Shown here: one piece after another, positions 30,132 to 45,649 of the stretch
Layout: the number at the start of each line of letters is the position of its first letter
Numbering within the stretch: the first letter of the stretch is position 1
Assembly: GCA_021805775.1 (NCBI GenBank)
Contig: JAJZED010000007.1
Coordinates: 1 to 64,000, forward strand
Direction of reading: 5' to 3'
Source of the DNA: a bacterium
GTDB lineage: Bacteria > Vulcanimicrobiota > Vulcanimicrobiia > Vulcanimicrobiales > Vulcanimicrobiaceae
DNA length: 64,000 bases
Notes under the pieces: generated by a model
Database searches by the model: none
Seen by the model: the letters and a program-made list of their open reading frames with translations, nothing else
Told to the model about the DNA's origin: nothing
Made by a program: the position numbers and the translations under genes

Positions 30132-30704
30132 ATGCTTGCCGATACGATGGGAAATGCTGGTGACGAAGGCGCGGGAGCGGCGCCGGTGGTTGAATCGAGC
30201 GCGGAGCGCTATCGCGGCCCGGTCTTTCGCGTGCGCACCGATCTGCTGCGTTATGCCGACGGGCATCGTTTCGCATGCGACGTCGTGGAGCACCCGGGCT
30301 CGGTCGCGGTTGCGGCGATGCTCGGCGAGCGCGCGTTGCTGCTGGTGCGGCAATATCGCCATCCGTTGCGCGCGACGATGTGGGAGATTCCGGCGGGAAA
30401 ATGCGAGGCGGGAGAGCTTCCGCTCGAAGGAGCAGCGCGCGAACTTGCAGAGGAGACGGGCTATCGTGCCGCCCGCTTCGAACTGCTCGCGAGCGTTGCG
30501 ATGACGCCGGGTTTCTGCGACGAGGTGCTGCACCTCGCGCTCGCGCGCGATCTCACGGCGGGCCTGCAGTCGCTTGACGAGGACGAACGCATCGACGTCC
30601 GTGCCGTGACGCTCGATGAGGGGATAGCGATGATCGCGCGCGGCGAGATCGCCGATGCGAAGACGGTACTCGCTTTCCTGTGGTTACAAAACGACGCTCG
30701 CTAA
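30132..30704 (+). CDS. NUDIX hydrolase, ADP-ribose pyrophosphatase-like
   Basis: About 190 residues from MLADTMGN; MGNAGDEG five codons later is an alternative start, and the longer upstream frame is antisense to the small membrane gene. The Nudix box is complete (G-x5-E-x7-REL-x-EE-x-GY; REL and EETGY visible, around residues 95-117). The N-terminal LLRYADGHRFACDVVEHPGSV resembles ADP-ribose pyrophosphatases. Cleaves nucleoside-diphosphate-linked substrates with Mg2+. Confidence 0.85.
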   Translation: MLADTMGNAGDEGAGAAPVVESSAERYRGPVFRVRTDLLRYADGHRFACDVVEHPGSVAVAAMLGERALLLVRQYRHPLRATMWEIPAGKCEAGELPLEGAARELAEETGYRAARFELLASVAMTPGFCDEVLHLALARDLTAGLQSLDEDERIDVRAVTLDEGIAMIARGEIADAKTVLAFLWLQNDAR

Positions 30705-30817
30705 TAAGCGAACGACTCAATATTTGCGGTGGTCCGTTAAACTGCGCGCCCGATATCTCGTTCGCGTCTAGTGTTGGTGGAACGATCGACAGATTTGGCC
30801 AATGATCTGAGCTCGTC

Positions 30818-31096
30818 ATGAATGATGTCGCTACGGAGGCATACGGAACCTCACTCGCAAAGCCGATCTTCGCTGCGGATCGAGAAGAGATAGACCGCCG
30901 TATAGGAACTCGAAAAGGAAACGTTGTCGGAACCCTCTACGCACTCTTTCGAACGTACGGGTACGGATCGTTCCCAGGCTATGGGAGCATCTTGCACGAC
31001 GTCGCGCAAGGAAATAACGGATTCCCTGCTGGTTCCGGCTACGATTGGGCTTCAGGTCTCGGCTCGGTAGACTTATGGGCACTGAGTGCCGTTTGA
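30818..31096 (+). pseudogene. C-terminal remnant of a sedolisin-like (S53) peptidase
   Basis: An in-frame TGA lies just upstream of the ATG. The frame holds GTSLAKPIFAA, matching the catalytic-serine GTS-x-x-x-P block of S53 peptidases, and later ILHDVAQGNNG...GSGYDWASGLGS, matching the calcium-binding C-terminal D-x-x-x-G-x-N and GYD-x-x-(T/S)GLG blocks. The N-terminal two thirds, with the Glu and Asp of the catalytic triad, are missing. Best read as a decayed fragment. Confidence 0.7.
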
Positions 31097-31106
31097 ATAG
31101 TAGGGA

Positions 31107-31328
31107 ATGACGATGAAAACAAATCTACTTCGCGCAGTTGCTGCTGCCTATTTCCTTGTCGCATCTGTTGTAGCGTGCGGTCGGCAGGGCGGTGTTGGAT
31201 ATACGCTTCCCCATATTGTACCGCCGACCCCGACGCCTTCTCCAACTCCGGTTGCTTCACCAATTGTAGGTCGCGGCAGACAGGCAGGCTTACCGACAAA
31301 GAGAGGTAGCCCCGGGAAACCGGGTTGA
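31107..31328 (+). CDS. Small predicted lipoprotein
   Basis: 73 residues. The signal segment (LLRAVAAAYFLVASVVAC) ends in a lipobox-like VVAC, followed by a Pro/Thr-rich stretch (PPTPTPSPTP) and a basic Gly-rich tail. MKTNLL at 31113 is an alternative start. Function unknown. It sits directly after the peptidase remnant in an accessory stretch. Confidence 0.55.
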   Translation: MTMKTNLLRAVAAAYFLVASVVACGRQGGVGYTLPHIVPPTPTPSPTPVASPIVGRGRQAGLPTKRGSPGKPG

Positions 31329-31494
31329 GCGATAAGTGGAGTCTTTGCTAACGGCGGGACGAATGCGCTTTGCGATCGGAGCAAGGAAACCGCCTATTCA
31401 AATGAACGCCGTTGCGCCACAGGTTGCAGGTCGGGGTAATGCGCAACAACAATGTCCGAGAAATGATCGCGCCTTGCGCAATGAGCATTCGCAA

Positions 31495-33042
31495 ATGCAA
31501 GTAAACAGGCTGGCGAATAGCAATCGTTACCTAATGGCGGTCGCGCTTGGCGTAACCGTCTGCCTTGCAGCATGCAGTGGGGCGGGGTTGCCGCAGGTGG
31601 CGCCGCCCCCTCCGTCGATTCCGGGAATCGGAGTGTTTGACGAAAGCGCGAAAGCGTGCACGGTTTCGTATGACGGCTTTGTTTGGTATAAAGTTCCATC
31701 GGGAAGCTTTTCTCCCATCGACGTTCGTCAGTCGACCTGCGGGGCGGGCGGCCTCGGCGATACTCCTAACGCCGTAATCCCGACCTGGGCGATACCGAGC
31801 GGACCGACAAAAGCGATTTTCGTCGCGACATCACTGCAGCAGGCGTATTCTTTGACCGGAATGCAGATGCTCGAGCATGATGCGTCGACGGCGCACGTGC
31901 CGATGACGTGGATGATCGGAAACAGCAGATATCTATCCAGCTCGGCGCTGTACAATGAGTACCACGCGCAAAACGGCGACGACGTGGAAACGGGTGAAAT
32001 CGGGGTGCCCATCTCCGCGATGCAATCCGCCTTTTCGTGGTACTCGCCGCACGTTTCTGTCGATGGAGCAGGGCACGAGCGAGATCCAGCTGTGGATATC
32101 GCCTCGGGATTCGGGGGCTTCTGGGGCATCACGTGGGACAGCCGCAACGTCGACGGAACGACTGACGAGGGTGCGCCGTGGGGTGAGTACTGCGCGGATC
32201 CATCGTCGTACAAGCGCCCAGATCCATCGGGCAACTGCTCGTTCATCGCTTACGAGTGGACGGCGCGCGATCTTACGCGCGCCTATCTCTCCGGCTTGGA
32301 CGCCTGGTTCTCAACGGATCCCGATGACATTTTACAACGAGCGGGCTTCGGCGTCGCCGCCGGCGCGCAGTACGAGCGCGAAATCATCGACGCATATGCC
32401 GCCGCGGGCGAAACGGCACCGTTCGTTGTCATGTCGCAGCAAGAGAGTGCGGACGAGGCGGCGGATCCGCATGACGACCAGTTGATGTCCGCGCTCTATG
32501 AAGAGGCGGTGAAGGATGGGATGAAGCTCGACACATTCGCAACGGTCAACGCAGACGCGCGTACCTTCGCTGCCGCGCCGCGGGCCATTGCCTTTCCGTA
32601 TATTCCGGGCGGCACGCTGGTGCCCTCGCCGGTGCTCGATGGAGGAACGCTCTATCCCGCCACGATCGACTACCACGACAGCACGGTTGGGATGACTTTT
32701 CTTGCCGGTCATACGACGCCGACCCGCGTCTTCGAGTATGCCGCGGATCCACAGTCGTTCTACAACGTTCCGCTAGTTGCGCTGCCCGCCTCGCAAACGC
32801 CTGTGCTCGTGAACGTCAGTATCACGAATGGTTCGATCGCGTTCGTCTTTCAGTCACCTGGTGCACTTCGCTACGGCGTCGCAATTTGGAGCGATCCCGC
32901 TGCGCTTGGAATTGCGGGGCCAAATGTCACGCCCGCAGGACGCGCGGGCACGGTTCTCACATTTGCCCTGCAACCGGGCCGTAACACGATTACCTTCGCG
33001 TGTCCCGGCTGTGTCGGCACGACCTTTCCGTACTCGAAATAA
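31495..33042 (+). CDS. Large predicted lipoprotein, unknown (weakly deacetylase-like)
   Basis: About 515 residues from MQVNRLAN, with MAVALGV at 31534 as an alternative start. The lipobox is in VCLAAC. The mature part is Trp/Tyr/Asp-rich, with MLEHDASTAHVPMTWMIGN and later GFWGITWDSRNVDG. The first stretch weakly recalls NodB-type polysaccharide deacetylases, but no metal triad can be assigned. C-terminal beta-rich stretch ending FACPGCVGTTFPYSK. It is followed after 13 bp by the barrel-like gene. Confidence 0.55.
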   Translation: MQVNRLANSNRYLMAVALGVTVCLAACSGAGLPQVAPPPPSIPGIGVFDESAKACTVSYDGFVWYKVPSGSFSPIDVRQSTCGAGGLGDTPNAVIPTWAIPSGPTKAIFVATSLQQAYSLTGMQMLEHDASTAHVPMTWMIGNSRYLSSSALYNEYHAQNGDDVETGEIGVPISAMQSAFSWYSPHVSVDGAGHERDPAVDIASGFGGFWGITWDSRNVDGTTDEGAPWGEYCADPSSYKRPDPSGNCSFIAYEWTARDLTRAYLSGLDAWFSTDPDDILQRAGFGVAAGAQYEREIIDAYAAAGETAPFVVMSQQESADEAADPHDDQLMSALYEEAVKDGMKLDTFATVNADARTFAAAPRAIAFPYIPGGTLVPSPVLDGGTLYPATIDYHDSTVGMTFLAGHTTPTRVFEYAADPQSFYNVPLVALPASQTPVLVNVSITNGSIAFVFQSPGALRYGVAIWSDPAALGIAGPNVTPAGRAGTVLTFALQPGRNTITFACPGCVGTTFPYSK

Positions 33043-33055
33043 GGAATCAGCGATC

Positions 33056-33832
33056 GTGAGAAGTTTCCTCGTTACCCTGGCCGTGCTCCTGGCATTCGCG
33101 CTGCAACCGGCGATCGCGCTGGCGACGCGAACGAGCACGATTTGCACGATCAATACTGGCCTCGACCCGGCGTGCCCGCTTACCGCCGCCGGAATATCGG
33201 CGTCCACGATCGTCCTTAACGGCAGCGCAACGCGTCATGAGAACGACGTCTTTGGATCGTTTGCGTGGCACGGAAATCAGCAGCTCACGCTCTCGTTACC
33301 AATTCACGACCATCTCGGCATCGCCGGTGTCGGAAACGCTTATGGTCTCGGTGATGCGATCGTCCGGTACACTAAAGCATTTGGGAAAGTCGGGCGTCTC
33401 ACACAGGTTGCCGGCGCATCGGTCGGCTTCGCTACCGGAGCTGCCGCTTTCTCCACGGGACGAACCCAACTCGCCCCAATGTATGCTCTTTCCTACGCAC
33501 TCGGCGACCGCATCGCACTGCTTGCGATCGCGAAATATCGCTTCGATGTCGGTGGAACGAAACTGCAGTTTGCGCCGCGCACGCAGGCGCTTACCTTCAC
33601 TCCGCGCGCAATTGTCGACCTTTCAAAAAGCGGACTCTACTTCGCGGCGGACATTTCGGGCGCAAGTGTCACCGGAGACGAGCGGTACCAGGCGTACCAG
33701 TCGGATGGAACGATTGGGATCGCTCGAAGACATTACGGCATCGCGCTGACGTACGGTGTTCCAATCGCTTACTTCACACGCCAAAACCTCTTCTACCATA
33801 CGCTGATCCTGCAGGCGACGTGGCGGCCCTAA
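33056..33832 (+). CDS. Predicted outer-membrane beta-barrel protein
   Basis: 258 residues. GTG start with AAGGA upstream gives a signal peptide (VRSFLVTLAVLLAFALQPAIALA). The remainder is alternating-hydrophobicity strands rich in Gly, Ala and Tyr (LSYALGDRIALLAIAKYRFDV, GIALTYGVPIAYF) and ends in an aromatic-rich ILQATWRP, as porin-like barrels do. Resembles the transporter type found with phenol-degradation-like OM proteins. Likely cotranscribed with the lipoprotein gene upstream. Confidence 0.6.
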   Translation: MRSFLVTLAVLLAFALQPAIALATRTSTICTINTGLDPACPLTAAGISASTIVLNGSATRHENDVFGSFAWHGNQQLTLSLPIHDHLGIAGVGNAYGLGDAIVRYTKAFGKVGRLTQVAGASVGFATGAAAFSTGRTQLAPMYALSYALGDRIALLAIAKYRFDVGGTKLQFAPRTQALTFTPRAIVDLSKSGLYFAADISGASVTGDERYQAYQSDGTIGIARRHYGIALTYGVPIAYFTRQNLFYHTLILQATWRP

Positions 33833-33912
33833 TGAGGAAGAGGAACGCTTGCGTGACGGATAAGGGGTAAGGACATGGCGCGCTTCAGAAAGCACGTCAC
33901 GACTCGCGGCTA

Positions 33913-34410
33913 TGAAGCCGGCTCGCTTTCGTGGAGAGTTTCTGTTGCATATTATGCGGCCCGAGCCTTTCGCCGCGCGAACTCTATAGGCGAGATATTT
34001 CGAAACGTCGTATGTCGGCGCCGCGAGTTGAACCATCCCTCGATGAAATCGAAGATTGCAAGCTCCGCCTCACGGTGGCTTTTGAATCGAATCGCGACGC
34101 GTCATTTGCATTCCAGCGTCGCGTTAAAACTCTCGCACATCGCATAATTGTTGCAATCGCCTAGCGATTCAATCGACGGCCGCACGTCGGCGCTCTCGCC
34201 GCGATTGGTGAACGTACGCGAGGTGTACCGCGATCTTTGGTTTGAGTGATGAAGGGCACCCGATGGCTTGCCTCGGTAGAGCGCCATGTCGAGCGCGTCG
34301 ACGAGCAGGTCAGCGCGCAGGTGCATCGCCATCGCCCAGCCGACTGCGCGCCGGTAGAACACGTTGAGAACGACCGCGAGAAACGCGAAGCCCGCCATCG
34401 CCGGCACGTT
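33913..34410 (-). mobile_element. Remnant of an IS3-family element
   Basis: The orfB-side terminus survives: from 33913 inward it reads TGAAGCCGGCTCGCTTTCGT, nearly identical to the terminus at 126-100 at the left edge of the window, so both belong to the same IS type. About 460 bp of orfB remain. The orfA end is missing, and the neighbouring oxidoreductase gene begins about 75 bp beyond. Confidence 0.8.
33952..34410 (-). pseudogene. IS3 transposase OrfB, C-terminal part with internal stop
   Basis: Reads FAFLAVVLNVFYRRAVGWAM, then HHSNQRSRYTS and GDCNNYAMCESFNATLECK, an in-frame TGA at 34102-34104, and continues in the same frame to EAELAIFDFIEGWFNSRRRH...SPIEF and a TAA at 33952. These are the rve-domain blocks around the second Asp (mutated, H-S-N instead of H-S-D) and the catalytic Glu of IS3 transposases. 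The N-terminal half is gone. Not functional. Confidence 0.85.
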
Positions 34411-34483
34411 GCCGGTGACGGCGCTGACGGCGGGGCATTTGCGCGGCAGGCAAAAAAGTCTAGGCATCAGAACTACGCGGCCC

Positions 34484-35800
34484 GTGCGTACCAAATCCGT
34501 CGCCGTAATCGGCGCGGGAATTGCGGGCCTTACCGCCGCCTACGAACTCGCGAAGAGCGGCGCCGATGTTACGGTGTTCGAGGCATCGGAGCGGGTCGGC
34601 GGAAGAATGAGTACGGATCGTTGCGACGGCTACCTCATCGATCGCGGGGCGCAGTTTCTCTCCGACGGATATGAGGTCATCGGGCGCTTGATCGCCGAGA
34701 CGGGGTTACAGCGCGAACTGCACGCGACGTCGTTGCTAGGCGGAACCGTTCGCGATGGCCGCATACGGCGCGTCAACCAACGAATGCCGACAAGCATCGT
34801 CGGCAGTGGACTGCTCGGCCCAATTGCGGCCCTACGCCTGGCAGCGGAGAGCCTCAAACTGCGTGCGCGCAGTGCCGGACTCTCGCTGAGCGACTATTCC
34901 GCGTGGCGCGCATTCGACGATTGCCCTGCGGAGGACTGGCTAAGAGCGCGCTTCGGTTCCGAGGTGCTCGAGTACGTGTTCGAACCGATGATCGCCGGCT
35001 TCTACTTCCAGGAACCGGAGCACGTCTCGGCTGCACTCGCGGCTTGGGTCTGGAACTACGCAATGCGCGGACACGGCAGTCTCGCGCTGAAAAACGGCAT
35101 CGGCAGCCTACCTGATGCCCTTGCATCGAAATTGAACGTGCGGCTTTCCTCACCGGTTCGCTCCGTCAGAGCCTCGGGCGAGGAGGGGGTGGAGATTTCG
35201 ATAGACGGCGGAACGATCGTAGCCGACGACGCGATTCTTGCAGTTCCAGCGCCGGCGGCGCGCTCCGCGTACGCCGCTCGAACGGACGCCGAGCGAAGGC
35301 TGCTTCAGACGCGTTACAGCTCGACGATCAACGCAGCGCTGATCTTTGACGACCGCCTTCCCGATCTGCCGGCGGCGCGCTCTATCTACGGCCTACTCGT
35401 TCCGCGGAGCGAACGACGCGCGATCGCGGGCATCGGCATAGAATCGCGCAAATGCGCTTCGTACGTTCCGCGCGGCGAACTTTTGAACGTGATGTTCGAC
35501 GGAATATCCGGAGAGCGTCTCATCGGGTCTTCGGACGAACAAATTATCGCTGAACTTTTCAGCGAGATCGAAATATATTTTCCCGGAATCGGAGGTGTTT
35601 CGCGCACCTATCTTCACCGCTGGCAGAACGCAGAGCCGTATTCGTATGTCGGCCGAAGTCGCGACGTTCGGGAGTATCGGCTGAGTGGATGCGCTTCGTC
35701 ACACGTACTACTGTGCGGTGATTACATGAGTACGCCGACAACCGAAGGCGCTGCGGAAAGCGGTGCCTGGGCTGCCGATGTAATTCGATCTCGCAACTAG
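34484..35800 (+). CDS. FAD-dependent amine-oxidase/protoporphyrinogen-oxidase-like protein
   Basis: About 438 residues from a GTG giving VRTKSVAVIGAG; the longer frame upstream overlaps the IS remnant. Rossmann FAD site VIGAGIAGLTAAYELAKSG with the ADP-ribose Glu in VFEAS, followed by RVGGRM. Other conserved parts: FEPMIAGFYF, a GGGSL-like GIGSLPDALA segment, and a C-terminal FAD site LCGDYMSTPTTEGAAESG. A HemY/UbiH-like or phytoene-desaturase-like oxidase; substrate uncertain. Confidence 0.75.
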   Translation: MRTKSVAVIGAGIAGLTAAYELAKSGADVTVFEASERVGGRMSTDRCDGYLIDRGAQFLSDGYEVIGRLIAETGLQRELHATSLLGGTVRDGRIRRVNQRMPTSIVGSGLLGPIAALRLAAESLKLRARSAGLSLSDYSAWRAFDDCPAEDWLRARFGSEVLEYVFEPMIAGFYFQEPEHVSAALAAWVWNYAMRGHGSLALKNGIGSLPDALASKLNVRLSSPVRSVRASGEEGVEISIDGGTIVADDAILAVPAPAARSAYAARTDAERRLLQTRYSSTINAALIFDDRLPDLPAARSIYGLLVPRSERRAIAGIGIESRKCASYVPRGELLNVMFDGISGERLIGSSDEQIIAELFSEIEIYFPGIGGVSRTYLHRWQNAEPYSYVGRSRDVREYRLSGCASSHVLLCGDYMSTPTTEGAAESGAWAADVIRSRN

Positions 35801-36050
35801 AAGCCTTTCGGTTAACGGCGCAGCGTGCGTTCGGGAAGATATTGAGACGAGCGAGAAGGACGTCAAGGCGGAGAGCCATCTCGACAAACGTGCCGATCGC
35901 TATAAGTAACTGTCGATCGAGAGCTCGTCATACCACGACATGAACGATCTCATCACTGAATGACATCGAAGGCAAAATGACCGGTGATGAAAAGTAGCTC
36001 GTTTTACGAACATTCAAAACCGAACGACAGCAAGTGGAGGATTGTATTGC

Positions 36051-36728
36051 ATGGCGACTAACCCGGCCGACGTTTTTTCGATTTCGTCGAAGGCATACGA
36101 TCGACAGGCATGGTTCGATGCAGGGTTGCTCTACGCGCTGTATGTCGGAGTAAACGTGGCCGGGAACATGGCGTACCGATTCCTCTCGGGGCACCCTTGG
36201 CTCGCGGTCGCGCAAAGCGTCGGGATTTTGCTATTTCTACTAGTGGTCGTTCTGATGCGGAGAGGTTACGGACACCCCGACTTTGCAGTCGGTGGTCTTG
36301 GCGATGCCTTGCATCGATTCCGGTGGCTGTGGGTGTTTGCGCTCTTAATCGCGCTCGTGGCGCCCCGCTTTCAGGGGCTCTTCCAGAACCATTCATTTCT
36401 GTGGTACCTGTGGCTCTTCGCGGGAGTCGTTTTGGCGCCGATAACCGAAGAGTTCGCGTTCCGGGGGGCGATTCAAACGTCACTCAACCGAACGTCGATT
36501 GGGAACAAGACGTTCATCGGCTTTCGGTTGGGTACGCTTATTTCCGCGATCTCGTTCTCGTGCGCGCATTTCGCCCTGCTCGCCGGAAATGTGGCGATGC
36601 CGCGCGTACTGTTCGAAGTACTGTCGGCACTTCCGCTCGCTCTTTTTGCCGGCTACGTTTACCAGCGTACAACGAACATTTGGTACGGTGTTCTAGTGCA
36701 TGCGTTGGGCAACCTAGGGGGAGCGTAA
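36051..36728 (+). CDS. CPBP-family intramembrane metalloprotease
   Basis: 225 residues, mostly membrane helices. The start is the ATG 10 nt after GGAGG; an in-frame TTG is too close to it. The three motifs of the Abi/CAAX family are present: EEFAFRG (E-E-x-x-x-R), FSCAHF (F-x-x-x-H) and HALGN near the end. These glutamic intramembrane proteases process prenylated or leader-bearing peptides, or serve in self-immunity. A 160-bp gap with no recognised gene follows, then a family lipoprotein. Confidence 0.85.
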   Translation: MATNPADVFSISSKAYDRQAWFDAGLLYALYVGVNVAGNMAYRFLSGHPWLAVAQSVGILLFLLVVVLMRRGYGHPDFAVGGLGDALHRFRWLWVFALLIALVAPRFQGLFQNHSFLWYLWLFAGVVLAPITEEFAFRGAIQTSLNRTSIGNKTFIGFRLGTLISAISFSCAHFALLAGNVAMPRVLFEVLSALPLALFAGYVYQRTTNIWYGVLVHALGNLGGA

Positions 36729-36888
36729 TGGGGTGCCCGCGTATCTGCATTAAACGTGCGGTGTTCCTCGTAATCGGCCACCGCCTCGTCCTTTCGATCG
36801 TAGATTGGTTGTACAAATTCAATCTTTCGAATCGACTCAGCGACCACCTCGGCCGCCGCTCGTTCAAAGTTGCAGGGAGTTTATCCTA

Positions 36889-37482
36889 ATGAAAAAAACT
36901 CGTGTTGGGGCAGCGAAACATTTGTGTATGTTTTTCGTTACACTCATGTGCATTACTTCGTGCGCGAACGCGTCGCAAGGAAAACGACCGGCACAACGAT
37001 CGGTTCTCGAAAACGATGTTACCCCCAACGGCGTTCATTGCACGACGTATGTTAACGTAACTCCCGGCTTTAGCTGCTACGAACGCGACCCTGGCTGGCC
37101 GGGCGTACGGTGCAGCGGCTACTTCGGTCCTAATGCGGAGAAAATGAAGAGACGGCTGTTTGGCCAATACGCTTTGCCGCCGAAAAATTATAGTATTCGT
37201 GAAATCGGTAAGCGCCACGTTCCGATTTTAACGCCCGCGCAGGAAGCAATTGTTCATATCTTGCTTAAGAGAACCGGCAGCAAAAACTTACGGTTTGTGT
37301 TTTTATCATTGAAAAGATCGCGAACGAAGCGATTTATCGTTTTTGACGCAATAAATGGACCATGCAGTGCCAGCGTCGGCCTATATGGCGTCTTAAACAT
37401 GGTATACAAGTCACGATATGCATATTACGAAAACGGGGAAGATCCGTACGGACTTCATTACGCATCAAACAAAATGCCGTAA
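36889..37482 (+). CDS. Predicted lipoprotein, member 1 of a local paralogous family
   Basis: 197 residues. Signal segment with lipobox CITSC near residue 25. The core matches the proteins at 41975-42580 and 43435-44058: (D/E)IG(K/R)xx(V/I)P, then a spacer, (I/L)(V/L)H-I, LRFVFLS, FIVFDA--GPC and a YGVLN block. This copy has an extra basic insert (KRSRTK) and lacks the PRPW(M/I)PH end of the others. Base composition is visibly more AT-rich than core genes here. Function unknown; I know of no named family. Confidence 0.65.
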   Translation: MKKTRVGAAKHLCMFFVTLMCITSCANASQGKRPAQRSVLENDVTPNGVHCTTYVNVTPGFSCYERDPGWPGVRCSGYFGPNAEKMKRRLFGQYALPPKNYSIREIGKRHVPILTPAQEAIVHILLKRTGSKNLRFVFLSLKRSRTKRFIVFDAINGPCSASVGLYGVLNMVYKSRYAYYENGEDPYGLHYASNKMP

Positions 37483-37727
37483 AGTTTCCACTACGTTGTA
37501 ATCGTACGTTGAAGACCGCCTCGACATCGAACGGGCAAGGTTTTTGCGACAAGCCGATCGATTTCTCCTCGACGCTTGGGGCGCGACGTCGACAGGCACG
37601 ATCGTGCGATAATGTAGAGTTCTTGCCGTGGTGTCCGGCTCGGTTCCGCGGGCAACCTACCGCGACCACAGATACCTACCCGCGCGATTCTTGACGGGAA
37701 GACCTTCTTGATATCGGCCTGAGTTTC

Positions 37728-38675
37728 TTAGCGATAGGGAGTAAAGTCGGACGCCGGAAGTCTTTTTGGAAACCCAATGTAGGTAATAACGAATGTATAC
37801 GCCCCACCTTCATGAAGCACCAAGAAATGTCCACTCGCGGTGACTGTGCCGCCAGTTAGCAGCCAGTATGGGCCAACCGGTCCGAAGGTAAAAGTCGCCG
37901 ACCCTCCACCACCCTCAATCAATCCGCGTTGCCCACCACCAAAGGTAATTGCATGTATACGATGATTTCGAACGCCAACGTAGATATCCGTAATAGGGTA
38001 TTTCGAGGGGTCCCCCAACGCGGTCAGTTTGAGATGATATACAGGAATGCCGCGGCGATCGTTAATTCCGATATCTTGGATGCGATAGTGAACGTTTACG
38101 TAGGCAGTTACGGTGGCTATTGTAGTAAAGGGTGAACGCTTGGGTATGGCTCCAACTCGGGCTTCGTCTGCTGGAGAGGAAGAAATTCTTGGCGTTATTC
38201 GAGGCGATCGTTGCGCCACGTTGTTATTAGCTTTTCGGACGGCGGCCCACGTTGCCCCATACGGGAATGGTCGACAACTGAATCCGTCGCGAGAGGCGGG
38301 GGCGACCGTTCCTGTATTGAGTTTCACTGCCTTGACGAGCGCGGCCCCATCCGACGAGCGAAACATAACAGGGTATATGAAGGATACGTTCTGATTCGGC
38401 TCGAGAGTTGGTGTAACGACGGTCGGTTCGATGCCAGGGTTTTCGCACGATATTTGCAACCACAGACCGTGAATATCGAATCGAATATCGTAATTTGCAA
38501 AAGCGGGCTGTGGGACTTGTTTCATCGTCGAAATCAACCAAGAATAGACCGCTTGCCCGCGAGGACGTATTTTCCCCTGCGCGTACACGATGTTTACGTT
38601 CGAAAAAACGAAAATTAGGGAGAACGAAACGATCAAATAAAATGATTTGGTTTTATTAATCAAGAGAAGTTCCAA
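37728..38675 (-). CDS. Exported protein of unknown function
   Basis: About 315 residues; the start is uncertain (TTG at 38675, or TTG four codons later) because no ATG precedes the signal peptide LIVSFSLIFVFSNVNIVYAQ. The mature part is beta-rich, with a Gly-rich loop (GLIEGGGGSATFTFGP). It contains a VHYRIQDIG-like strand, but I cannot link it to the lipoprotein family nearby. AT-rich compared with core genes, suggesting recent transfer. The flanking stretch 37483-37727 shows nothing recognisable. Confidence 0.55.
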   Translation of the reverse strand: MELLLINKTKSFYLIVSFSLIFVFSNVNIVYAQGKIRPRGQAVYSWLISTMKQVPQPAFANYDIRFDIHGLWLQISCENPGIEPTVVTPTLEPNQNVSFIYPVMFRSSDGAALVKAVKLNTGTVAPASRDGFSCRPFPYGATWAAVRKANNNVAQRSPRITPRISSSPADEARVGAIPKRSPFTTIATVTAYVNVHYRIQDIGINDRRGIPVYHLKLTALGDPSKYPITDIYVGVRNHRIHAITFGGGQRGLIEGGGGSATFTFGPVGPYWLLTGGTVTASGHFLVLHEGGAYTFVITYIGFPKRLPASDFTPYR

Positions 38676-38914
38676 TTCTATTGCGAGACCGAGCGGACTT
38701 TATTAGGCCAATCCGATGCTTATGCGATCTTTTTTTGGGTCCGGCGCATGGCACACAAACTTAGACCTTCCACTTCAGTCGCTCAAAAGACATTTCCCTC
38801 TCGCATAATTACAAAGTGTAGGCGCGCCTTCGGTAGTTCGTGGCTCCGGGCGGAGCGACGCGGAACGCTACGGTTCAATTCACGGCCGCAATATCTGGAG
38901 CATGCACGATTTGG

Positions 38915-38949
38915 CTGGGGACGAGTTCGGTATAGGCCTTCGTCCCCAG
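38915..38949 (-). other. 10-bp hairpin in a 335-bp gene-free stretch
   Basis: CTGGGGACGA pairs perfectly with TCGTCCCCAG across a 15-nt loop. It lies about 60 bp after the stop of the carbonic anhydrase gene on the minus strand and could end that transcript, though no T run follows. The rest of 38676-39010 shows no convincing gene. Confidence 0.55.
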
Positions 38950-39010
38950 GAACACTCATGCATATTCTAGCAGCGCTTCGATTCGTCGATCGTAAAGTGC
39001 GTTGGCTTCA

Positions 39011-39730
39011 TTACAACAACGTAACTTTTCCGCTCGCGAGATCGTAGAGCGCGCCGACGACGCGAAGTTTTCCGCTACGCACCGCATCGGCGACGATCGC
39101 CGAACGGTGCGGTAGGGCGGCGACGTTCTCGCGCACGTTCTGTACGATTGCATCGTGCAGCCAGTCTCCGGCGTGCCCTTTGCTCGCTCTAGCAGCGGGT
39201 TCGATCGCGCGCACGAGACCGGCGATATGTCCCGGCGGCATCGCGCCGCTCTTCACGTTGTCGACCGCCGCTTTGACTGCGCCGCACTCCGAATGCCCCA
39301 TCACCAAGACGAGCGTCGATTTGAGAACGGCGACCGAGTATTCAATCGAGCCGATGCCGTTGTCGTCGAGAAAATTTCCCGCAATGCGCACGCCGAAAAT
39401 ATTACCCGGTTCTTCATCGAAGATCGTTTCGACCGGAACCCTCGAATCCGAGCACGAGAGCACGATTGCGTACGGGCTCTGACCGTCGGCGAGCGCTGCG
39501 CGCCGCTGGGTGAGCGGCGGACAGGTGGGGTGACCGGCGATGAAGCGCGCGTTCCCCGCCATCAACCGTGCGAGCCCGGCCTTCGCATCGGCGGCCATCG
39601 GGGGCGGCGCGGTGCCGGCGGCCTCGGCGATTCCGGTGATGCTCGGTAGCGCGAGCGCACCGGCGGCGATTCCGAGCCCGGCGCGTGCGAGAAACGAGTG
39701 GCGGTCGCAACGATGGGATTCGCAGTCCAC
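39011..39730 (-). CDS. Exported beta-class carbonic anhydrase
   Basis: 239 residues. The N-terminus (DRHSFLARAGLGIAAGALALP) looks like a Tat-type signal with a weakened twin-arginine motif. The catalytic domain has the zinc ligands of the beta class: Cys in VLSCSDSRVP, and His and Cys in GHSECGAVKAA, with the Asp-Arg dyad in CSDSR. Interconverts CO2 and bicarbonate, probably in the periplasm. It follows rplT on the same strand but is separated from it by a terminator. Confidence 0.9.
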   Translation of the reverse strand: MDCESHRCDRHSFLARAGLGIAAGALALPSITGIAEAAGTAPPPMAADAKAGLARLMAGNARFIAGHPTCPPLTQRRAALADGQSPYAIVLSCSDSRVPVETIFDEEPGNIFGVRIAGNFLDDNGIGSIEYSVAVLKSTLVLVMGHSECGAVKAAVDNVKSGAMPPGHIAGLVRAIEPAARASKGHAGDWLHDAIVQNVRENVAALPHRSAIVADAVRSGKLRVVGALYDLASGKVTLL

Positions 39731-41229: not shown

Positions 41230-41481
41230 CTAGCGGTAATAGGCCTGCTCCAGGCGGTCGAGCCGGCCGTCGACGGTGAGGCGCCAACGCTGGAGCCCCG
41301 CGACCTCCCCGGAGACCGAGGTGAGCTGGGTTTCGACGCGATCGAGCCGACCTTCGACGCGATCGAGCCGGCTTTCGACGCGATCGAGCCGGCTTTCGAC
41401 CATGGCGAAGCCATTGGTGACCGCCCCGTGCAGATCGAGCACGGCGGTCATGATCTCGCGGGGGCTCGGTTCGGCGTCCAT
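41230..41481 (-). CDS. Small coiled-coil protein with heptad repeats
   Basis: 83 residues starting MDAEPSPREIMTAVLDLHGA. The middle is three tandem copies of (E)SRLDRV or GRLDRV, a 7-residue, 21-bp repeat, in a continuous heptad pattern, then VETQLTSVSGEVAGLQRW and a DGRLDRLEQ end. Likely an oligomerising coiled coil; no catalytic domain. Such DUF-like repeats occur widely, and this one may be a real gene or a repeat-driven frame. Confidence 0.55.
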   Translation of the reverse strand: MDAEPSPREIMTAVLDLHGAVTNGFAMVESRLDRVESRLDRVEGRLDRVETQLTSVSGEVAGLQRWRLTVDGRLDRLEQAYYR

Positions 41482-41671
41482 GGTGGAAGAGTAGCGTACG
41501 GCGATTGCCGGAGGTTTTCCTCGGCGTTGCCGGAGGATCTCGGGAACGGAGCTCACCCCGATCCTCACACGATGGATGCGCTCGACGCGGGGATCGGCGG
41601 TCGCTTCGGCGACGCGCGCGTGGTGCGAGAAACGTCCGCCGCATCGTCAACGTCGCGGGAAGGACGGTCGT

Positions 41672-42001
41672 ACTTTCGTTTATTCGGCCAACGACGTGGC
41701 CATCGTGTTGCCGGGAAATATCGGCGCGGAACTCTCCGATGCAGGGGATTTCTTTCGCGATGCCCTGCGCGAATTGAAGCGCTCGCTCGCGACCTTCTTC
41801 GTCCTCAATCGCTCCGTCGATTCAGTCAATCTGCTACGCGTCTTCATCGAAGAGTTTCCCGAGGCCGGGAAGCTGATCGCGGTGCGAAACCGCTTCTTCG
41901 GCGATGCGGATCGCTTCACACGATGGAACGAATCGAAAACCCGGCAAGCATTCCTCAACGGCGGACGTAGGATCTCATTGTGGAGAATTGTTGTCTTGTG
42001 A
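41672..42001 (+). pseudogene. Fragment of a ParA/MinD-like ATPase
   Basis: The frame reads DVAIVLPGNIGAELSDAGDF, then FFVLNRSVDSVNLLRVFIEEFP, IAVRNRFFGDADRFTRWNES and KTRQAFLNGGRRISL. This pattern recalls the C-terminal half of plasmid-type ParA-like proteins, where the target-RNRFFG-x-x-x-x-F-x-W-x-x-S block is common. The Walker A half is missing and the frame runs into the convergent lipoprotein gene. Probably a degraded plasmid-derived fragment. Confidence 0.45.
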
Positions 42002-42580
42002 CCACGACGCGCCGTTCGGGTTTCCTCCGCCATGCGGCATCCATGGGCGAGGTTGATGGAAACACCCCCCTGGTCCGGCGAATATCTGGTTGCCCCGGGG
42101 CGTGTCTACATCGGTCGGCATGAAAACCTCGCCACACGAAGGTGCGTTAAGCACCGTATATGGTGTGCCGCCACATGGTCCGTAACCGGCATCGAAGACG
42201 ATGAACGTCGTGCCTCCTAAGTATGAAAAACGTAATGTACGTGAGCGGACATAGCGCATGATCTTGTGGAGTATCGATAGATTACGAGCATCGATGGTTG
42301 GGACGCCGGGTTTCCCGATGTCACTCGCTAAGTAACTTGGTTGACCAACGACGCCATTCCGGCTGCACGCAGCGCCTAATCCGGCGTGCACTATCAGGAT
42401 AGGGGCGTTGATGTTAGACTTTGTCGCGATCGCGGTTGGGGCAGCGGATATATGCGGCGCCGGCGCAGTGGACGCGGACGGCTTCGGCGACGCGGTTGAC
42501 GATCTCGCCTGACACCCAATGAGGCTAAACCCGAGCGCAAAAACCATAATCCGCCGTGCAGTTAAGTTAGCGAGAACCAA
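41975..42580 (-). CDS. Predicted lipoprotein, member 2 of the local family
   Basis: About 201 residues; the start is TTG 42580 with GGGGAG upstream, or ATG 42547. Lipobox FSLIGC. A Pro/Ala/Ser linker leads to the family core: GLGAACSRNG, SDIGKPGVP, ILHKIMRYVRSRTLRFSYL, FIVFDAGYGPCGG and YTVLNAPSC. A second conserved end, GGCFHQPRPWMPH, matches PGCWNVPRPWIPH of member 3. Four conserved Cys suggest disulphides. Its start overlaps the preceding gene by 14 bp. Function unknown. Confidence 0.7.
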   Translation of the reverse strand: MVLANLTARRIMVFALGFSLIGCQARSSTASPKPSASTAPAPHISAAPTAIATKSNINAPILIVHAGLGAACSRNGVVGQPSYLASDIGKPGVPTIDARNLSILHKIMRYVRSRTLRFSYLGGTTFIVFDAGYGPCGGTPYTVLNAPSCGEVFMPTDVDTPRGNQIFAGPGGCFHQPRPWMPHGGGNPNGASWSQDNNSPQ

Positions 42581-43136
42581 ATGTCGTTTCTCCCCAGGTT
42601 ACTTTCTTGCAAGAGGGTGGCCCGCATCTGAACCGGAGAAAGCCGACGCTTAACGTAATCCAGATTTCGCCGGCATGCGATCCCGCCAATCCTGCGAAAC
42701 GTTTCCCAATAACCTGCACGTCATATAATTTATAAAGCATTCCGTCGTTAGCATCATCGATGGTTGCTTCCCGCAATTTTCCCTGTTTATTTATGAGCAA
42801 AATAAGAGTACGAGCACTCGACATTGTCACCGGTCGAATGTAAAAACGAGTAACATATCCTATATCGGCCGTATTTTGGCCTATACCGCTTAGCAACACC
42901 AGCCCGGTATAATGCGATGAAAAAGAGAACGTTACTTGTTTTCCTGGATTAGGTTGCACCCTACGAGGCTGAATTGGTTGTACCGTTGATACTTCTCCAC
43001 GTGCGGGGTGAAGAATTGATGCGGTGATTCGTGAAATCGTGGAGCTGGGGGTAGGAACATGGCGGTTACAAGCGATTAACACCGTCACAATCAGTAACGA
43101 TAGGGTAAGTGGTTTCTCGGGAAACGTCATCTTCAC
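42567..43136 (-). CDS. Predicted lipoprotein, unrelated to the local family
   Basis: About 189 residues; GTG start (43134-43136) with AAGGA upstream. Signal segment and lipobox VLIAC. The mature part is beta-rich, including VTFSFSSHYTGLVLLSGIG and a Cys pair (RCGPPSCKK). No match to the family lipoproteins was found by eye. Visibly AT-rich. A perfect 19-bp hairpin lies just upstream of its ribosome binding site. Translation is likely coupled to member 2 downstream. Confidence 0.6.
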   Translation of the reverse strand: MKMTFPEKPLTLSLLIVTVLIACNRHVPTPSSTISRITASILHPARGEVSTVQPIQPRRVQPNPGKQVTFSFSSHYTGLVLLSGIGQNTADIGYVTRFYIRPVTMSSARTLILLINKQGKLREATIDDANDGMLYKLYDVQVIGKRFAGLAGSHAGEIWITLSVGFLRFRCGPPSCKKVTWGETTFGSR

Positions 43137-43151
43137 GGCAGGTCCTTTAGT

Positions 43152-43195
43152 AGCGTAATCTTGCGTTCACTGCTTGGTGAACGCAAGATTACGCT
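43152..43195. repeat. Perfect 19-bp inverted repeat
   Basis: AGCGTAATCTTGCGTTCAC (43152-43170) pairs without mismatch with 43177-43195 around a 6-nt loop TGCTTG. It lies between an IS3 OrfA fragment and the lipoprotein gene starting at 43136, about 5 nt before that gene's AAGGA. No T run follows. It may be a bidirectional hairpin, a transposon scar, or a 5' UTR control structure. Confidence 0.95.
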
Positions 43196-43223
43196 CAGCA
43201 TCGTTGTAAGACGGTTTGCCTGA

Positions 43224-43412
43224 CTATCGCTGCTTACGCCGGTTCGAGAGCAGCGATGAGTAAATGCGCTCGCGCCGACACTGCGCGGCCTTCTCGATGG
43301 CCGATGCGCCGTCGTAGGCATCGAGGATGCGCGCCTTTTCCGCGGCAGTAAAGCGGCGGCGAGTTGCCTTCGCCGACACCTTGGGGTTAGGGATTGTAGG
43401 ATTGGATTCCAT
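43224..43412 (-). pseudogene. IS3-type transposase OrfA, N-terminal fragment
   Basis: 62 codons: the start MESNPTIPNPKVSAK leads into RRRFTAAEKARILDAYDGAS and CRRERIYSSLLSNRRKQR, then a stop. This is the helix-turn-helix part of an IS3-family OrfA (IS407/ISL-like group) that normally continues for about 100 residues more. No OrfB follows. Inactive relic between two lipoprotein genes. Confidence 0.7.
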
Positions 43413-43434
43413 GACATAGAGGGTCGGGTCAGGG

Positions 43435-44058
43435 TCAAGCACTACCCGTAATTTGTCCCCCGGGGTTACCGGAAGGATAGTGTGACCAAGATCCCTTTCC
43501 ACGCCCACGATCATGCGGTATCCAGGGCCGAGGCACGTTCCAACAACCCGGAACGGCGTGAGGGGCCTTAAGGTCAAGCGGCGGTTGATAATACACATTA
43601 CATGACGCGGCATTCAAGACATAATAGCCAGATGGGCGTGGATTACACAAACCTGCCGATGCATCATAAACATAAAATTTTCCGCTGAGGAAAACAAACC
43701 GCAATGTTCGGGTATGCACATAGCGCATTATTCTATGCAACATGGATAGATCCGAAGGGCTTACCTTGGGGATGCCCGGCCTTCCAATATCGCTAACGGG
43801 AAAGCTTGCGGAGCTGGTGTGTCCGTTAAGATAACATGCGGTGCCTAACCCGATTTGCACCTCAACGGGCATTAGTGCCCCCTCGGGTTCGAAAATAGCC
43901 TCCGGCGGACGGAAAATCATCGTCTCGACTCGACCTACACGGTGCCCCGAGCCAGTAAGAGTACGAGTTATCTGCGTACGCGATCGTTGTCCGCTACATG
44001 CAAAAGTTATGATACACAACACGAGAAGAAAAAAAATCGGGGAGACTCGCCTAATCAC
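43435..44058 (-). CDS. Predicted lipoprotein, member 3 of the local family
   Basis: 207 residues. GTG start (44056-44058) chosen by GAGG 6 nt upstream and by a GTGA overlap with the upstream remnant; TTG two codons earlier is possible. Signal segment IFFLLVLCIITFAC. Core blocks: GLGTACYLNG, SDIGRPGIP, MLHRIMRYVHTRTLRFVFLSG, FYVYDASAGLC, YYVLNAASC and PGCWNVPRPWIPH. Nearest relative in the window is member 2. Function unknown. Confidence 0.7.
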   Translation of the reverse strand: MIRRVSPIFFLLVLCIITFACSGQRSRTQITRTLTGSGHRVGRVETMIFRPPEAIFEPEGALMPVEVQIGLGTACYLNGHTSSASFPVSDIGRPGIPKVSPSDLSMLHRIMRYVHTRTLRFVFLSGKFYVYDASAGLCNPRPSGYYVLNAASCNVYYQPPLDLKAPHAVPGCWNVPRPWIPHDRGRGKGSWSHYPSGNPGGQITGSA

Positions 44059-44133
44059 TTGCAACCTCGCCTTGGAGTGTGATCATAGACAATGAAATGC
44101 ATCGTTGGGGCGAGTGCCCACATGTATGAGAAC
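44055..44133 (-). pseudogene. 3' remnant of a fourth lipoprotein-family gene
   Basis: Immediately outside the left IS terminus the minus strand reads (Q)FSYMWALAPTMHFIVYDH and ends TPRRGCK. FSYM and HFIVYD line up with FSYL and TFIVFD of member 2. The TGA at 44055-44057 overlaps the GTG of member 3. The 5' part is absent; the IS interrupts it and its other half is not on the far side. Short, so the assignment is tentative. Confidence 0.5.
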
Positions 44134-44164
44134 TGGAGTGGCCTCGATTTCGTAGACACGAAGT

Positions 44165-45052
44165 TTAGGCAGCCTGAGTATTCTCGAACTGCTCGGGGCT
44201 GACGTATCCGAGCGTTGAGTGCCGACGTTGCCGATTGTACCAGATTTCGATGTACTCGAAAACGATCGCCCTCGCCGATTCTCGAGACTCGAAGGTCGGA
44301 TCGTCGAGTTCGCGCTTGAGCGTCGCGAAGAAGCTCTCGGTCACCGCGTTGTCCCAACAGTTGCCCTTGCGGCTCATGCTGCAGAGCATCCCGTTTCGGT
44401 CGTAAAAGCGCTGAACCGCATCGCTGGCATACTGCACCCCGCGATCGGAATGAACGAGCAGCGTCTGCTCAACGGCGCGACGATCTGCCGCCATTTGTAA
44501 CGCGTCGAGAACGAGTCGCGACTCGAGTCGATGACTCATCGACCAGCCAACGATCTTCCGCGAGAAAAGATCGAGGACCACGGCGAGATAGAGCCAGCCC
44601 TCGCGCGTACGCAGGTAGGTAATGTCGCTGGTCCACACGCGATTCGGCGCTTCGATTTCCGCTGGAGCGAAGTGTCGTTCGAGCAGATTTCCGGCGAGCG
44701 GCTTGCCGTGTTTGGAATCGGTGGTCACCTTGAATGCACGAGGCGTTTTGCCGCGAATGCCGGCTTCCCGCATCAGCTTGGCGACGCGACGGCGGGAAAC
44801 GCGTTTGCCGCCATCGCGGAGATCGCGTACGATCGGTCGACTGCCATATCGAGAGCGGCTCTTGCGGTGGAGAGTAACGACCTCAAAGCGAAGCACGCCG
44901 TCTCGTGTCGTTCGCGCGCTCGGCAGCCGATGCTGCCATGCATAAAATCCGGACGGCGAAACATTCAGTGCGCGGCACATCAAGCGCACTCGCCACACGC
45001 CGATATGTTCTTGAATACAGGCATATCTCACCGCGATTGCTTCGCGAACCAA
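44165..45052 (-). CDS. IS3 transposase OrfB (integrase domain)
   Basis: 295 residues as an open frame, produced mainly as an OrfAB fusion. N-terminal HTH_21 region (ALNVSPSGFYAWQHR, RYGSRPIVRDLRD) followed by the rve core with the DDE triad: Asp in WTSDITYL, Asp in HSDRGVQY and Glu in AVTESFFATLK. The C-terminus is YNRQRRHSTLGYVSPEQFE. The frame opens upstream through the A8 run at 45060-45067. Confidence 0.93.
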   Translation of the reverse strand: MVREAIAVRYACIQEHIGVWRVRLMCRALNVSPSGFYAWQHRLPSARTTRDGVLRFEVVTLHRKSRSRYGSRPIVRDLRDGGKRVSRRRVAKLMREAGIRGKTPRAFKVTTDSKHGKPLAGNLLERHFAPAEIEAPNRVWTSDITYLRTREGWLYLAVVLDLFSRKIVGWSMSHRLESRLVLDALQMAADRRAVEQTLLVHSDRGVQYASDAVQRFYDRNGMLCSMSRKGNCWDNAVTESFFATLKRELDDPTFESRESARAIVFEYIEIWYNRQRRHSTLGYVSPEQFENTQAA

Positions 45053-45324
45053 ATTGCCGTTTTTTTTAAAATATCCCGTTCCTCGGTTACATCGGCAAGC
45101 TGTCGCCGAAGGCGACGAATCTCTTCATCTTGAGCGGTGGGCTTGCCGTTGCCGCGAAACGCTTCTTTGTCCTCAGCCTTGAGCTGGCGCATCCACCCAT
45201 ATAAAAGGCTCGGGTCTATACCGATCGACCGCGCAACCTCCGTCGCGGTCTCACCACTGTCGATAACGCGGCGTACCGCCTCGATCTTCAACTCACGCGG
45301 GAATTTCCGCCGTTGGTCTGCCAT
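45028..45324 (-). CDS. IS3 transposase OrfA
   Basis: 98 residues. A helix-turn-helix domain (RKFPRELKIEAVRRVIDSG, EVARSIGIDPSLLYGWMRQL) and a leucine-zipper-like end (EIRRLRRQLADVTEERDIL). Near its 3' end is a run of eight As on the coding strand (plus 45060-45067), the typical slippery site for the -1 frameshift that makes OrfAB. OrfB lies in the -1 frame. Confidence 0.93.
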   Translation of the reverse strand: MADQRRKFPRELKIEAVRRVIDSGETATEVARSIGIDPSLLYGWMRQLKAEDKEAFRGNGKPTAQDEEIRRLRRQLADVTEERDILKKTAIWFAKQSR

Positions 45325-45649
45325 GGGGCACCATTCTTTCCGGCCTCCCCCTGAGGCCTATCATGGTGTCCACGAAACTGAGGCCAGGCCACCTCCTTGA
45401 CGCAGCAATATGCACGAGCATCTTCATTCCACCGAGGTGATGGGCGCGCCCCTCGATGCGACCCTGGAGAAGCCCCGAGGCTTCGAGCGCGCGGAGGTGC
45501 TTCGAAATTGCCGGCGCGGAGACGGGGCGGTCGGCGGTAATCTCGCCCACGGTGCGTTCGCCGCCAGCCAGCCGTTCGACGATCGCCCGACGCGTCGGGT
45601 CGGCGAGCGCCGAGAAAGCCCCGTCGAGGCGCGCGATGCCCGGCGTCAA
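45293..45649 (-). pseudogene. ArsR-type regulator truncated by the IS
   Basis: From a TTG start the frame reads DGAFSALADPTRRAIVERLA, ERTVGEITAD, PVSAPAISKHLRALEASGLL and RIEGRAHHL, a clear ArsR winged helix. After about residue 72 the sequence no longer fits, and at 45391 it enters the IS, whose sequence supplies the tail. The dimerisation helix is missing. It is divergent from degV, which it may once have flanked as a neighbour only. Confidence 0.75.

What the first reader, a model, noticed from the sequence alone, without database searches (positions are those of the whole stretch)
41975..44133. Unnamed paralogous lipoprotein family, three full copies and one IS-cut copy
Proteins at 36889-37482, 41975-42580 and 43435-44058 share (D/E)IG(K/R)-P, (I/M)LH-I, LRF-(Y/F)L, F-VFDA or VYDA, and Y-VLN blocks plus lipoboxes. 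A fourth fragment (44055-44133) keeps FSYM and HFIVYD next to the IS end and couples by GTGA to member 3. They cluster with a CPBP protease and AT-rich DNA, and I know no name for the family. Function cannot be inferred.
Basis: partly seen in the sequence, partly recalled or inferred. Interest (0 to 1): 0.7.

Follow-up and report, generated by a model that had tools for sequence, protein, structure and literature searches.

The report
Unnamed roaming lipoprotein family with partner
Three look-alike genes in this stretch belong to a previously unnamed family of small, mostly membrane-anchored exported proteins found in a little-studied bacterial phylum; the genes sit at different chromosomal sites in different species, and some sit beside a second unnamed large lipoprotein that is probably their binding partner.

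Summary
Copies A (36889-37482), B (41975-42580) and C (43435-44058) are homologous well beyond chance. The fourth piece (44055-44138) is a plausible but weakly supported remnant. The genome has a further copy on another contig. Within the held genomes of the phylum (Ca. Eremiobacterota), 29 of 149 carry matches. No Pfam, NCBIfam, PHROGs, PADLOC, PDB-sequence or fold match was found.

The family is an exported domain with an invariant cysteine pair; 20 of 25 members have a lipobox. A and C are under purifying selection. B and C are not a recent tandem duplication.

The genes are accessory cargo. Sister species lack both segments of the window, and same-genus orthologues of A and C lie at other sites, which are empty in this genome.

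The CPBP link is not general: 2 of about 31 loci, although that exceeds chance.

The new clue is a second unnamed family of roughly 500-residue lipoproteins. All five strong copies lie directly beside a family member, on the same strand and in both gene orders. A sixth, divergent pair exists.

Best reading: an exported binding partner (inhibitor, immunity protein or chaperone) of that lipoprotein, with orphan copies. The function is inferred, not shown.

The parts
36889..37482 (+). Copy A: small lipoprotein of the family (197 aa, lipobox ITSC, with a long insertion before the core)
   Evidence: orthologues in G035, G030 and G037 at another site (DNA 79.7%); dN/dS about 0.36
41975..42580 (-). 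Copy B: small lipoprotein (ORF from TTG 42580; likely start ATG 42547, lipobox LIGC)
43435..44058 (-). Copy C: small lipoprotein (likely GTG start at 44058; lipobox TFAC)
   Evidence: same-genus orthologue L066:8880-9515 next to the large partner lipoprotein
44055..44138 (-). Fragment D: 27-residue remnant LQFSYMWALAPTMHFIVYDHTPRRGCK, cut by the IS on one side and by an early stop on the other
   Evidence: weak: 3.2 bits, 35 of 20,000 shuffles reach it
44139..45386 (-). IS3-family insertion sequence (orfA 45028-45324, orfB 44165-45052), imperfect terminal inverted repeats, no target duplication
   Evidence: near copies in G037 (93%) and G034
42567..43136 (-). Gene E: unrelated small lipoprotein upstream of B; relatives in G037 and G035 stand alone at another site, so it is not a fixed partner of B
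43224..43400 (-). Remnant of a second transposase orfA-like gene between C and E (MESNPTIPNPKVSAKATRRRFTAAEKARILDAYDG...)
   Evidence: by eye, not tested by profile
36042..36728 (+). CPBP / Rce1-like membrane protease gene just upstream of A
   Evidence: PF02517, 8.7e-17
35794..39014 (.). Inserted segment 1 (CPBP, A and a 315-aa exported protein at 37728-38675): absent in sister species G033; a larger stretch 30692-39009 is absent in G038
41645..45436 (.). Inserted segment 2 (B, E, transposase remnant, C, D, IS): replaced by 67 bp in G038 and absent in G033, G035, G030, G034 and G031
45437..45649 (-). arsR-type regulator gene whose 3' part was lost at the edge of segment 2 (full length in G032)

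Best explanation
A, B and C belong to an unnamed family of small exported proteins in Ca. Eremiobacterota, most with a lipobox and so probably lipid-anchored on the outer side of a membrane. Each has one compact domain with an invariant cysteine pair (one probable disulfide). The genes are accessory cargo that is gained, lost and found at different sites between closely related species. I infer that the domain works by binding another exported protein. The best candidate is the unnamed ~500-aa lipoprotein encoded directly beside the family member in five independent loci, plus one divergent pair. In that role it would be a cognate inhibitor, immunity protein or chaperone. Copies without the large gene, such as those in this window, would be orphans that protect against, or modulate, partner proteins carried by relatives. 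Shown: family, conserved core, export signals, purifying selection on A and C, changed locations, partner adjacency. Inferred: disulfide, binding, direction of effect, orphan role.
For: Family and core. Lipobox in 20 of 25. dN/dS 0.21 for C and 0.36 for A against same-genus orthologues. Distribution: 29 of 149 genomes of the phylum, 43 matches including weak ones. Different locations: orthologues of A and C share no flanking DNA with the window. The ilvE-exonuclease site that holds A in G035/G030/G037, and the flagellar-gene site that holds C in G035, are empty in this genome. The window sites are empty in sister species. Partner: all five strong large-lipoprotein genes of the phylum lie 24-289 bp from a family member on the same strand, in both orders. 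A divergent large gene (E 1.6e-6) sits next to a divergent family member in G008. My rough estimate for 6 of 11 by chance is about 1e-19.
Against: Most family members (about 26 of 32 clear loci) have no large partner nearby, and this genome has none at all. At least five more distant large genes stand without a detectable family member. Neither family has a known fold or catalytic motif, so 'inhibitor', 'immunity' and 'chaperone' cannot be told apart. The small proteins do not clearly diverge faster than the large ones, except in one pair. The adjacency odds are rough and post hoc.
Confidence: 0.35

Rival explanations
1. Stand-alone surface lipoprotein: a cargo gene that alters the cell surface (for example shielding a phage receptor or blocking superinfection); adjacency to the large lipoprotein only reflects shared cargo sites.
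For: Most copies are solitary between unrelated core genes; patchy presence and changing sites within one genus; AT-rich composition.
Against: No match in PHROGs or PADLOC, in phage or plasmid records, or in viral contigs. Five of five strong large genes being adjacent, on the same strand and in both orders, is hard to explain by shared sites alone.
Confidence: 0.25
2. Part of a CPBP-linked module: the CPBP membrane protease upstream of A processes or protects against a toxin, with the lipoprotein as accessory or immunity factor.
For: CPBP genes are rare (about 3 per genome), yet two family members have one directly upstream on the same strand: A here and G034:C73. Expected about 0.02 for that exact layout, or 0.07 for either side. 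A CPBP gene with a small Gly/Ala-rich protein sits in G031 at the flagellar site where G035 carries the family member.
Against: Only 2 of about 31 loci. Close relatives carry A without CPBP, and CPBP relatives without the family member.
Confidence: 0.1
3. Structural or housekeeping envelope lipoproteins of the lineage, relocated by ordinary rearrangement.
For: C and A diverge from same-genus orthologues at the DNA level (82% and 80%) about as much as neighbouring core genes do (82-88%), which fits vertical descent within the genus plus relocation.
Against: Absent from about 80% of the phylum's held genomes and from half of the genus; not a housekeeping pattern. Family tree mixes genera.
Confidence: 0.15
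4. Non-functional or spurious ORFs drifting in AT-rich insertions.
For: Fragment D and the transposase remnant show decay in segment 2.
Against: Conserved cysteines and motifs across genera; dN/dS well below 1 for A and C.
Confidence: 0.03

Closest known systems
Bacterial lipoproteins in general (Lsp / Lol substrates)
   Same: Signal peptide with lipobox Cys in 20 of 25 members, then a low-complexity tether and a compact domain
   Different: Domain matches no named lipoprotein family; some members have a plain signal peptide or no clear lipobox
Orphan immunity proteins of secreted antibacterial toxins (e.g. type VI secretion immunity arrays)
   Same: Paralogous exported proteins in variable sites beside IS elements; some beside a larger co-encoded exported protein, others solitary
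   Different: The large partner has no recognised toxin domain and carries its own lipoprotein signal; no secretion-system association was tested
CPBP (Rce1-like, PF02517) bacteriocin-immunity / processing loci
   Same: A CPBP gene lies upstream of copy A and of one member in G034
   Different: Absent next to about 29 of 31 members; the family itself is not a CPBP or a bacteriocin

Membership tests
Bacterial lipoprotein | N-terminal signal peptide with lipobox and Cys | tested here: met
   20 of 25 aligned members including A, B and C (pattern match only)
Any named protein family (Pfam, NCBIfam, PHROGs, PADLOC) | Profile match at significance | tested here: not met
Any solved structure | Sequence-profile or fold match | tested here: inconclusive
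   No sequence-profile match; no fold match, but the model is low confidence (mean pLDDT 55, core about 75-84)
CPBP-linked immunity module | Consistent co-location with a CPBP gene | tested here: not met
   2 of about 31 loci
Orphan immunity protein | Homologue encoded beside its cognate toxin in some genomes | tested here: inconclusive
   Adjacent large lipoprotein in six loci, but no toxin domain recognised
Orphan immunity protein | Neutralises a toxin in cells | not testable with these tools
   Needs expression experiments
Integron gene cassette | attC-like repeats flanking each gene, integrase nearby | tested here: not met
   No shared repeats flank A, B or C; no integrase gene noticed between 33000 and 48000 (by eye). 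The rest of the genome was not searched for an integrase
tRNA-targeted genomic island | tRNA gene at the insertion edge | tested here: not met
   No tRNA in the window
Neprosin peptidase (for the large partner) | PF03080 match | tested here: not met
   No match in the phylum scan (controls silent too) and none in the hmmscan of the large partners

The most novel reading that the evidence does not exclude
The small and large lipoproteins form a new two-part exported system of Ca. Eremiobacterota, such as a surface-anchored toxin or peptidase with its cognate inhibitor, and the solitary small genes at variable sites form a dispersed set of orphan immunity genes.
Probability: 0.2. Interest if true: 0.7.

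Novelty: new variant of a known kind. Interest (0 to 1): 0.42.

Why it matters
It adds two linked, uncharacterised exported protein families to a phylum with very few cultured members, and gives a concrete pair of proteins to test. It also shows single genes occupying different sites between close species without an obvious mobile element of their own, and identifies recurrent cargo sites (next to flagellar genes and on both sides of the rplT-infC block) where exported competition or surface genes may be looked for.

Tried and rejected
Recent tandem duplication of B and C: rejected (saturated synonymous divergence; tree). Conserved operon of B with gene E: rejected (E relatives stand alone in G035 and G037). 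CPBP as a general partner: rejected. Phage or plasmid origin: no hit in viral contigs, phages or plasmids. Neprosin-like peptidase as the large partner: a guess from memory, not supported (the phylum scan had silent controls, so absence is not proven). Small family members beside the remaining large genes: none at E <= 0.1 with a broadened profile; one look-alike noticed by eye in L112 (803-1360) did not score. Two structure predictions from 3-4 sequences gave mean pLDDT 48 and 55 and no fold match. Genome-wide named search of 85,000 species found only one relative because the patterns were restrictive, so absence outside the phylum is not established.

Full report
Observation. Profiles built without the tested copy and its same-genus orthologue score 87-154 bits against at most 9.9 for 5000 shuffles. 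The fourth piece is 27 residues long, bounded by the end of an IS3-family element at 44139 and by a stop that overlaps the GTG start of copy C (GTGA). Its profile score is only 3.2 bits and it lacks the GPC and VLN blocks, so I call it a plausible remnant and no more. The same genome carries another copy on contig C6, between a biotin synthase-like gene and a methyltransferase-like gene (gene names by eye).

The family. Searching genomes related to the window gave matches in 23 of 99 genomes of its family with copy B alone, and in 29 of 149 genomes of its phylum with a 25-member profile (43 matches, about 32 of them strong). The shared core reads G..C ... GP.SY.v.DiGKpGvP.Lt..q...l..I..YvhS.tLRFafl...fIVFdA..GPC...Y.VLN..cN..Y.P. 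Two cysteines and the L of VLN are invariant. Twenty of 25 members have a lipobox by pattern. One protein in G067 has two such domains in a row. Nothing in Pfam, NCBIfam, PHROGs, PADLOC or PDB sequences matches. Low-confidence models suggest strand-helix-strands in the core and match no fold.

Selection and ancestry. Copy C against its G035 orthologue has dN/dS about 0.21, copy A about 0.36, so both are maintained coding genes. B against C is saturated at synonymous sites. In the tree, C joins a copy from another genus before B (96/88), and genera are mixed throughout.

Location. Same-genus orthologues of A and C share no flanking DNA with the window. Comparison with sister species shows that two segments of the window are missing there: 35794-39014 (G033; a larger 30692-39009 is missing in G038) and 41645-45436 (G038; also missing in G033, G035, G030, G034 and G031). 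Conversely, the ilvE-exonuclease site where G035, G030 and G037 carry A, and the flagellar-gene site where G035 carries C, are empty in this genome. G035, G030 and G037 are 99% identical there and count as one lineage. Divergence of A and C from their orthologues is close to that of core genes, so descent within the genus plus relocation fits at least as well as recent transfer. No attC-like repeats or tRNA mark the edges; the mechanism of relocation is unknown. The IS beside D lacks a target duplication and arsR is cut at that edge, so IS-associated rearrangement is likely for segment 2.

CPBP. With about 3 CPBP genes per genome, two of about 31 family members have one directly upstream on the same strand (window A; G034:C73). 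That is more than expected (about 0.02-0.07) but far from a rule, and relatives of the window's CPBP in G035, G037 and G030 have no family member in the stretches read beside them.

The partner. Clustering of neighbouring proteins revealed a second unnamed family of 490-560-aa lipoproteins with no family or PDB match. A phylum-wide search found five strong copies, and all five lie 24-289 bp from a small family member on the same strand; the small gene comes first in three and second in two. A sixth, divergent large gene (E 1.6e-6 with a profile that excludes it) lies 10 bp from a divergent small one in G008. Other, more distant large genes have no detectable small neighbour. Conserved adjacency with changing order is a usual sign of functional linkage (general knowledge).

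Mechanism. I therefore propose that the small protein is an exported, usually lipid-anchored binding partner of the large lipoprotein, most simply an inhibitor or immunity protein, or else a chaperone, and that solitary copies are orphans. Steps shown: homology, export signals by pattern, conserved cysteines, selection on A and C, changed locations, partner adjacency. Steps inferred: disulfide, binding, direction of effect, orphan role. Confidence in the family is above 0.95; in the binding mechanism about 0.35.

Novelty. The family is new in the sense that no library names it, but unnamed accessory lipoproteins are a familiar kind of gene; the conserved pair lifts it above routine.

Noticed in passing
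L170:437-1759, L171:554-1671, L169:1205-2122 (flagellar-gene site in G031, G037, G034): The site that holds the partner and the C orthologue in G035 holds different cargo in sister species: CPBP plus a small Gly/Ala-rich protein, a small helical protein plus a membrane protein, or a Gly-rich lipoprotein. They look like competition modules; apart from the CPBP none matches a family.
   Followed up: partly
L066, about 6999-7297: A sequence of roughly 300 bp just upstream of the large lipoprotein gene in G035 is repeated in several genomes of the genus at 70-85% identity, perhaps a small non-autonomous mobile element.
   Followed up: no
L018:1369-2427 (G067): A single protein with two copies of the domain in tandem.
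   Followed up: no
L068:7864-10092 (G052): Two nearly identical family members flank a two-gene unit that looks like a toxin-antitoxin pair by eye.
   Followed up: no
window 41230-41568: Coiled-coil protein with in-frame 21-bp repeats whose length differs between sister species.
   Followed up: no
L112:803-1360: Divergent small secreted ORF next to a large-partner fragment; resembles the family by eye but does not score.
   Followed up: partly
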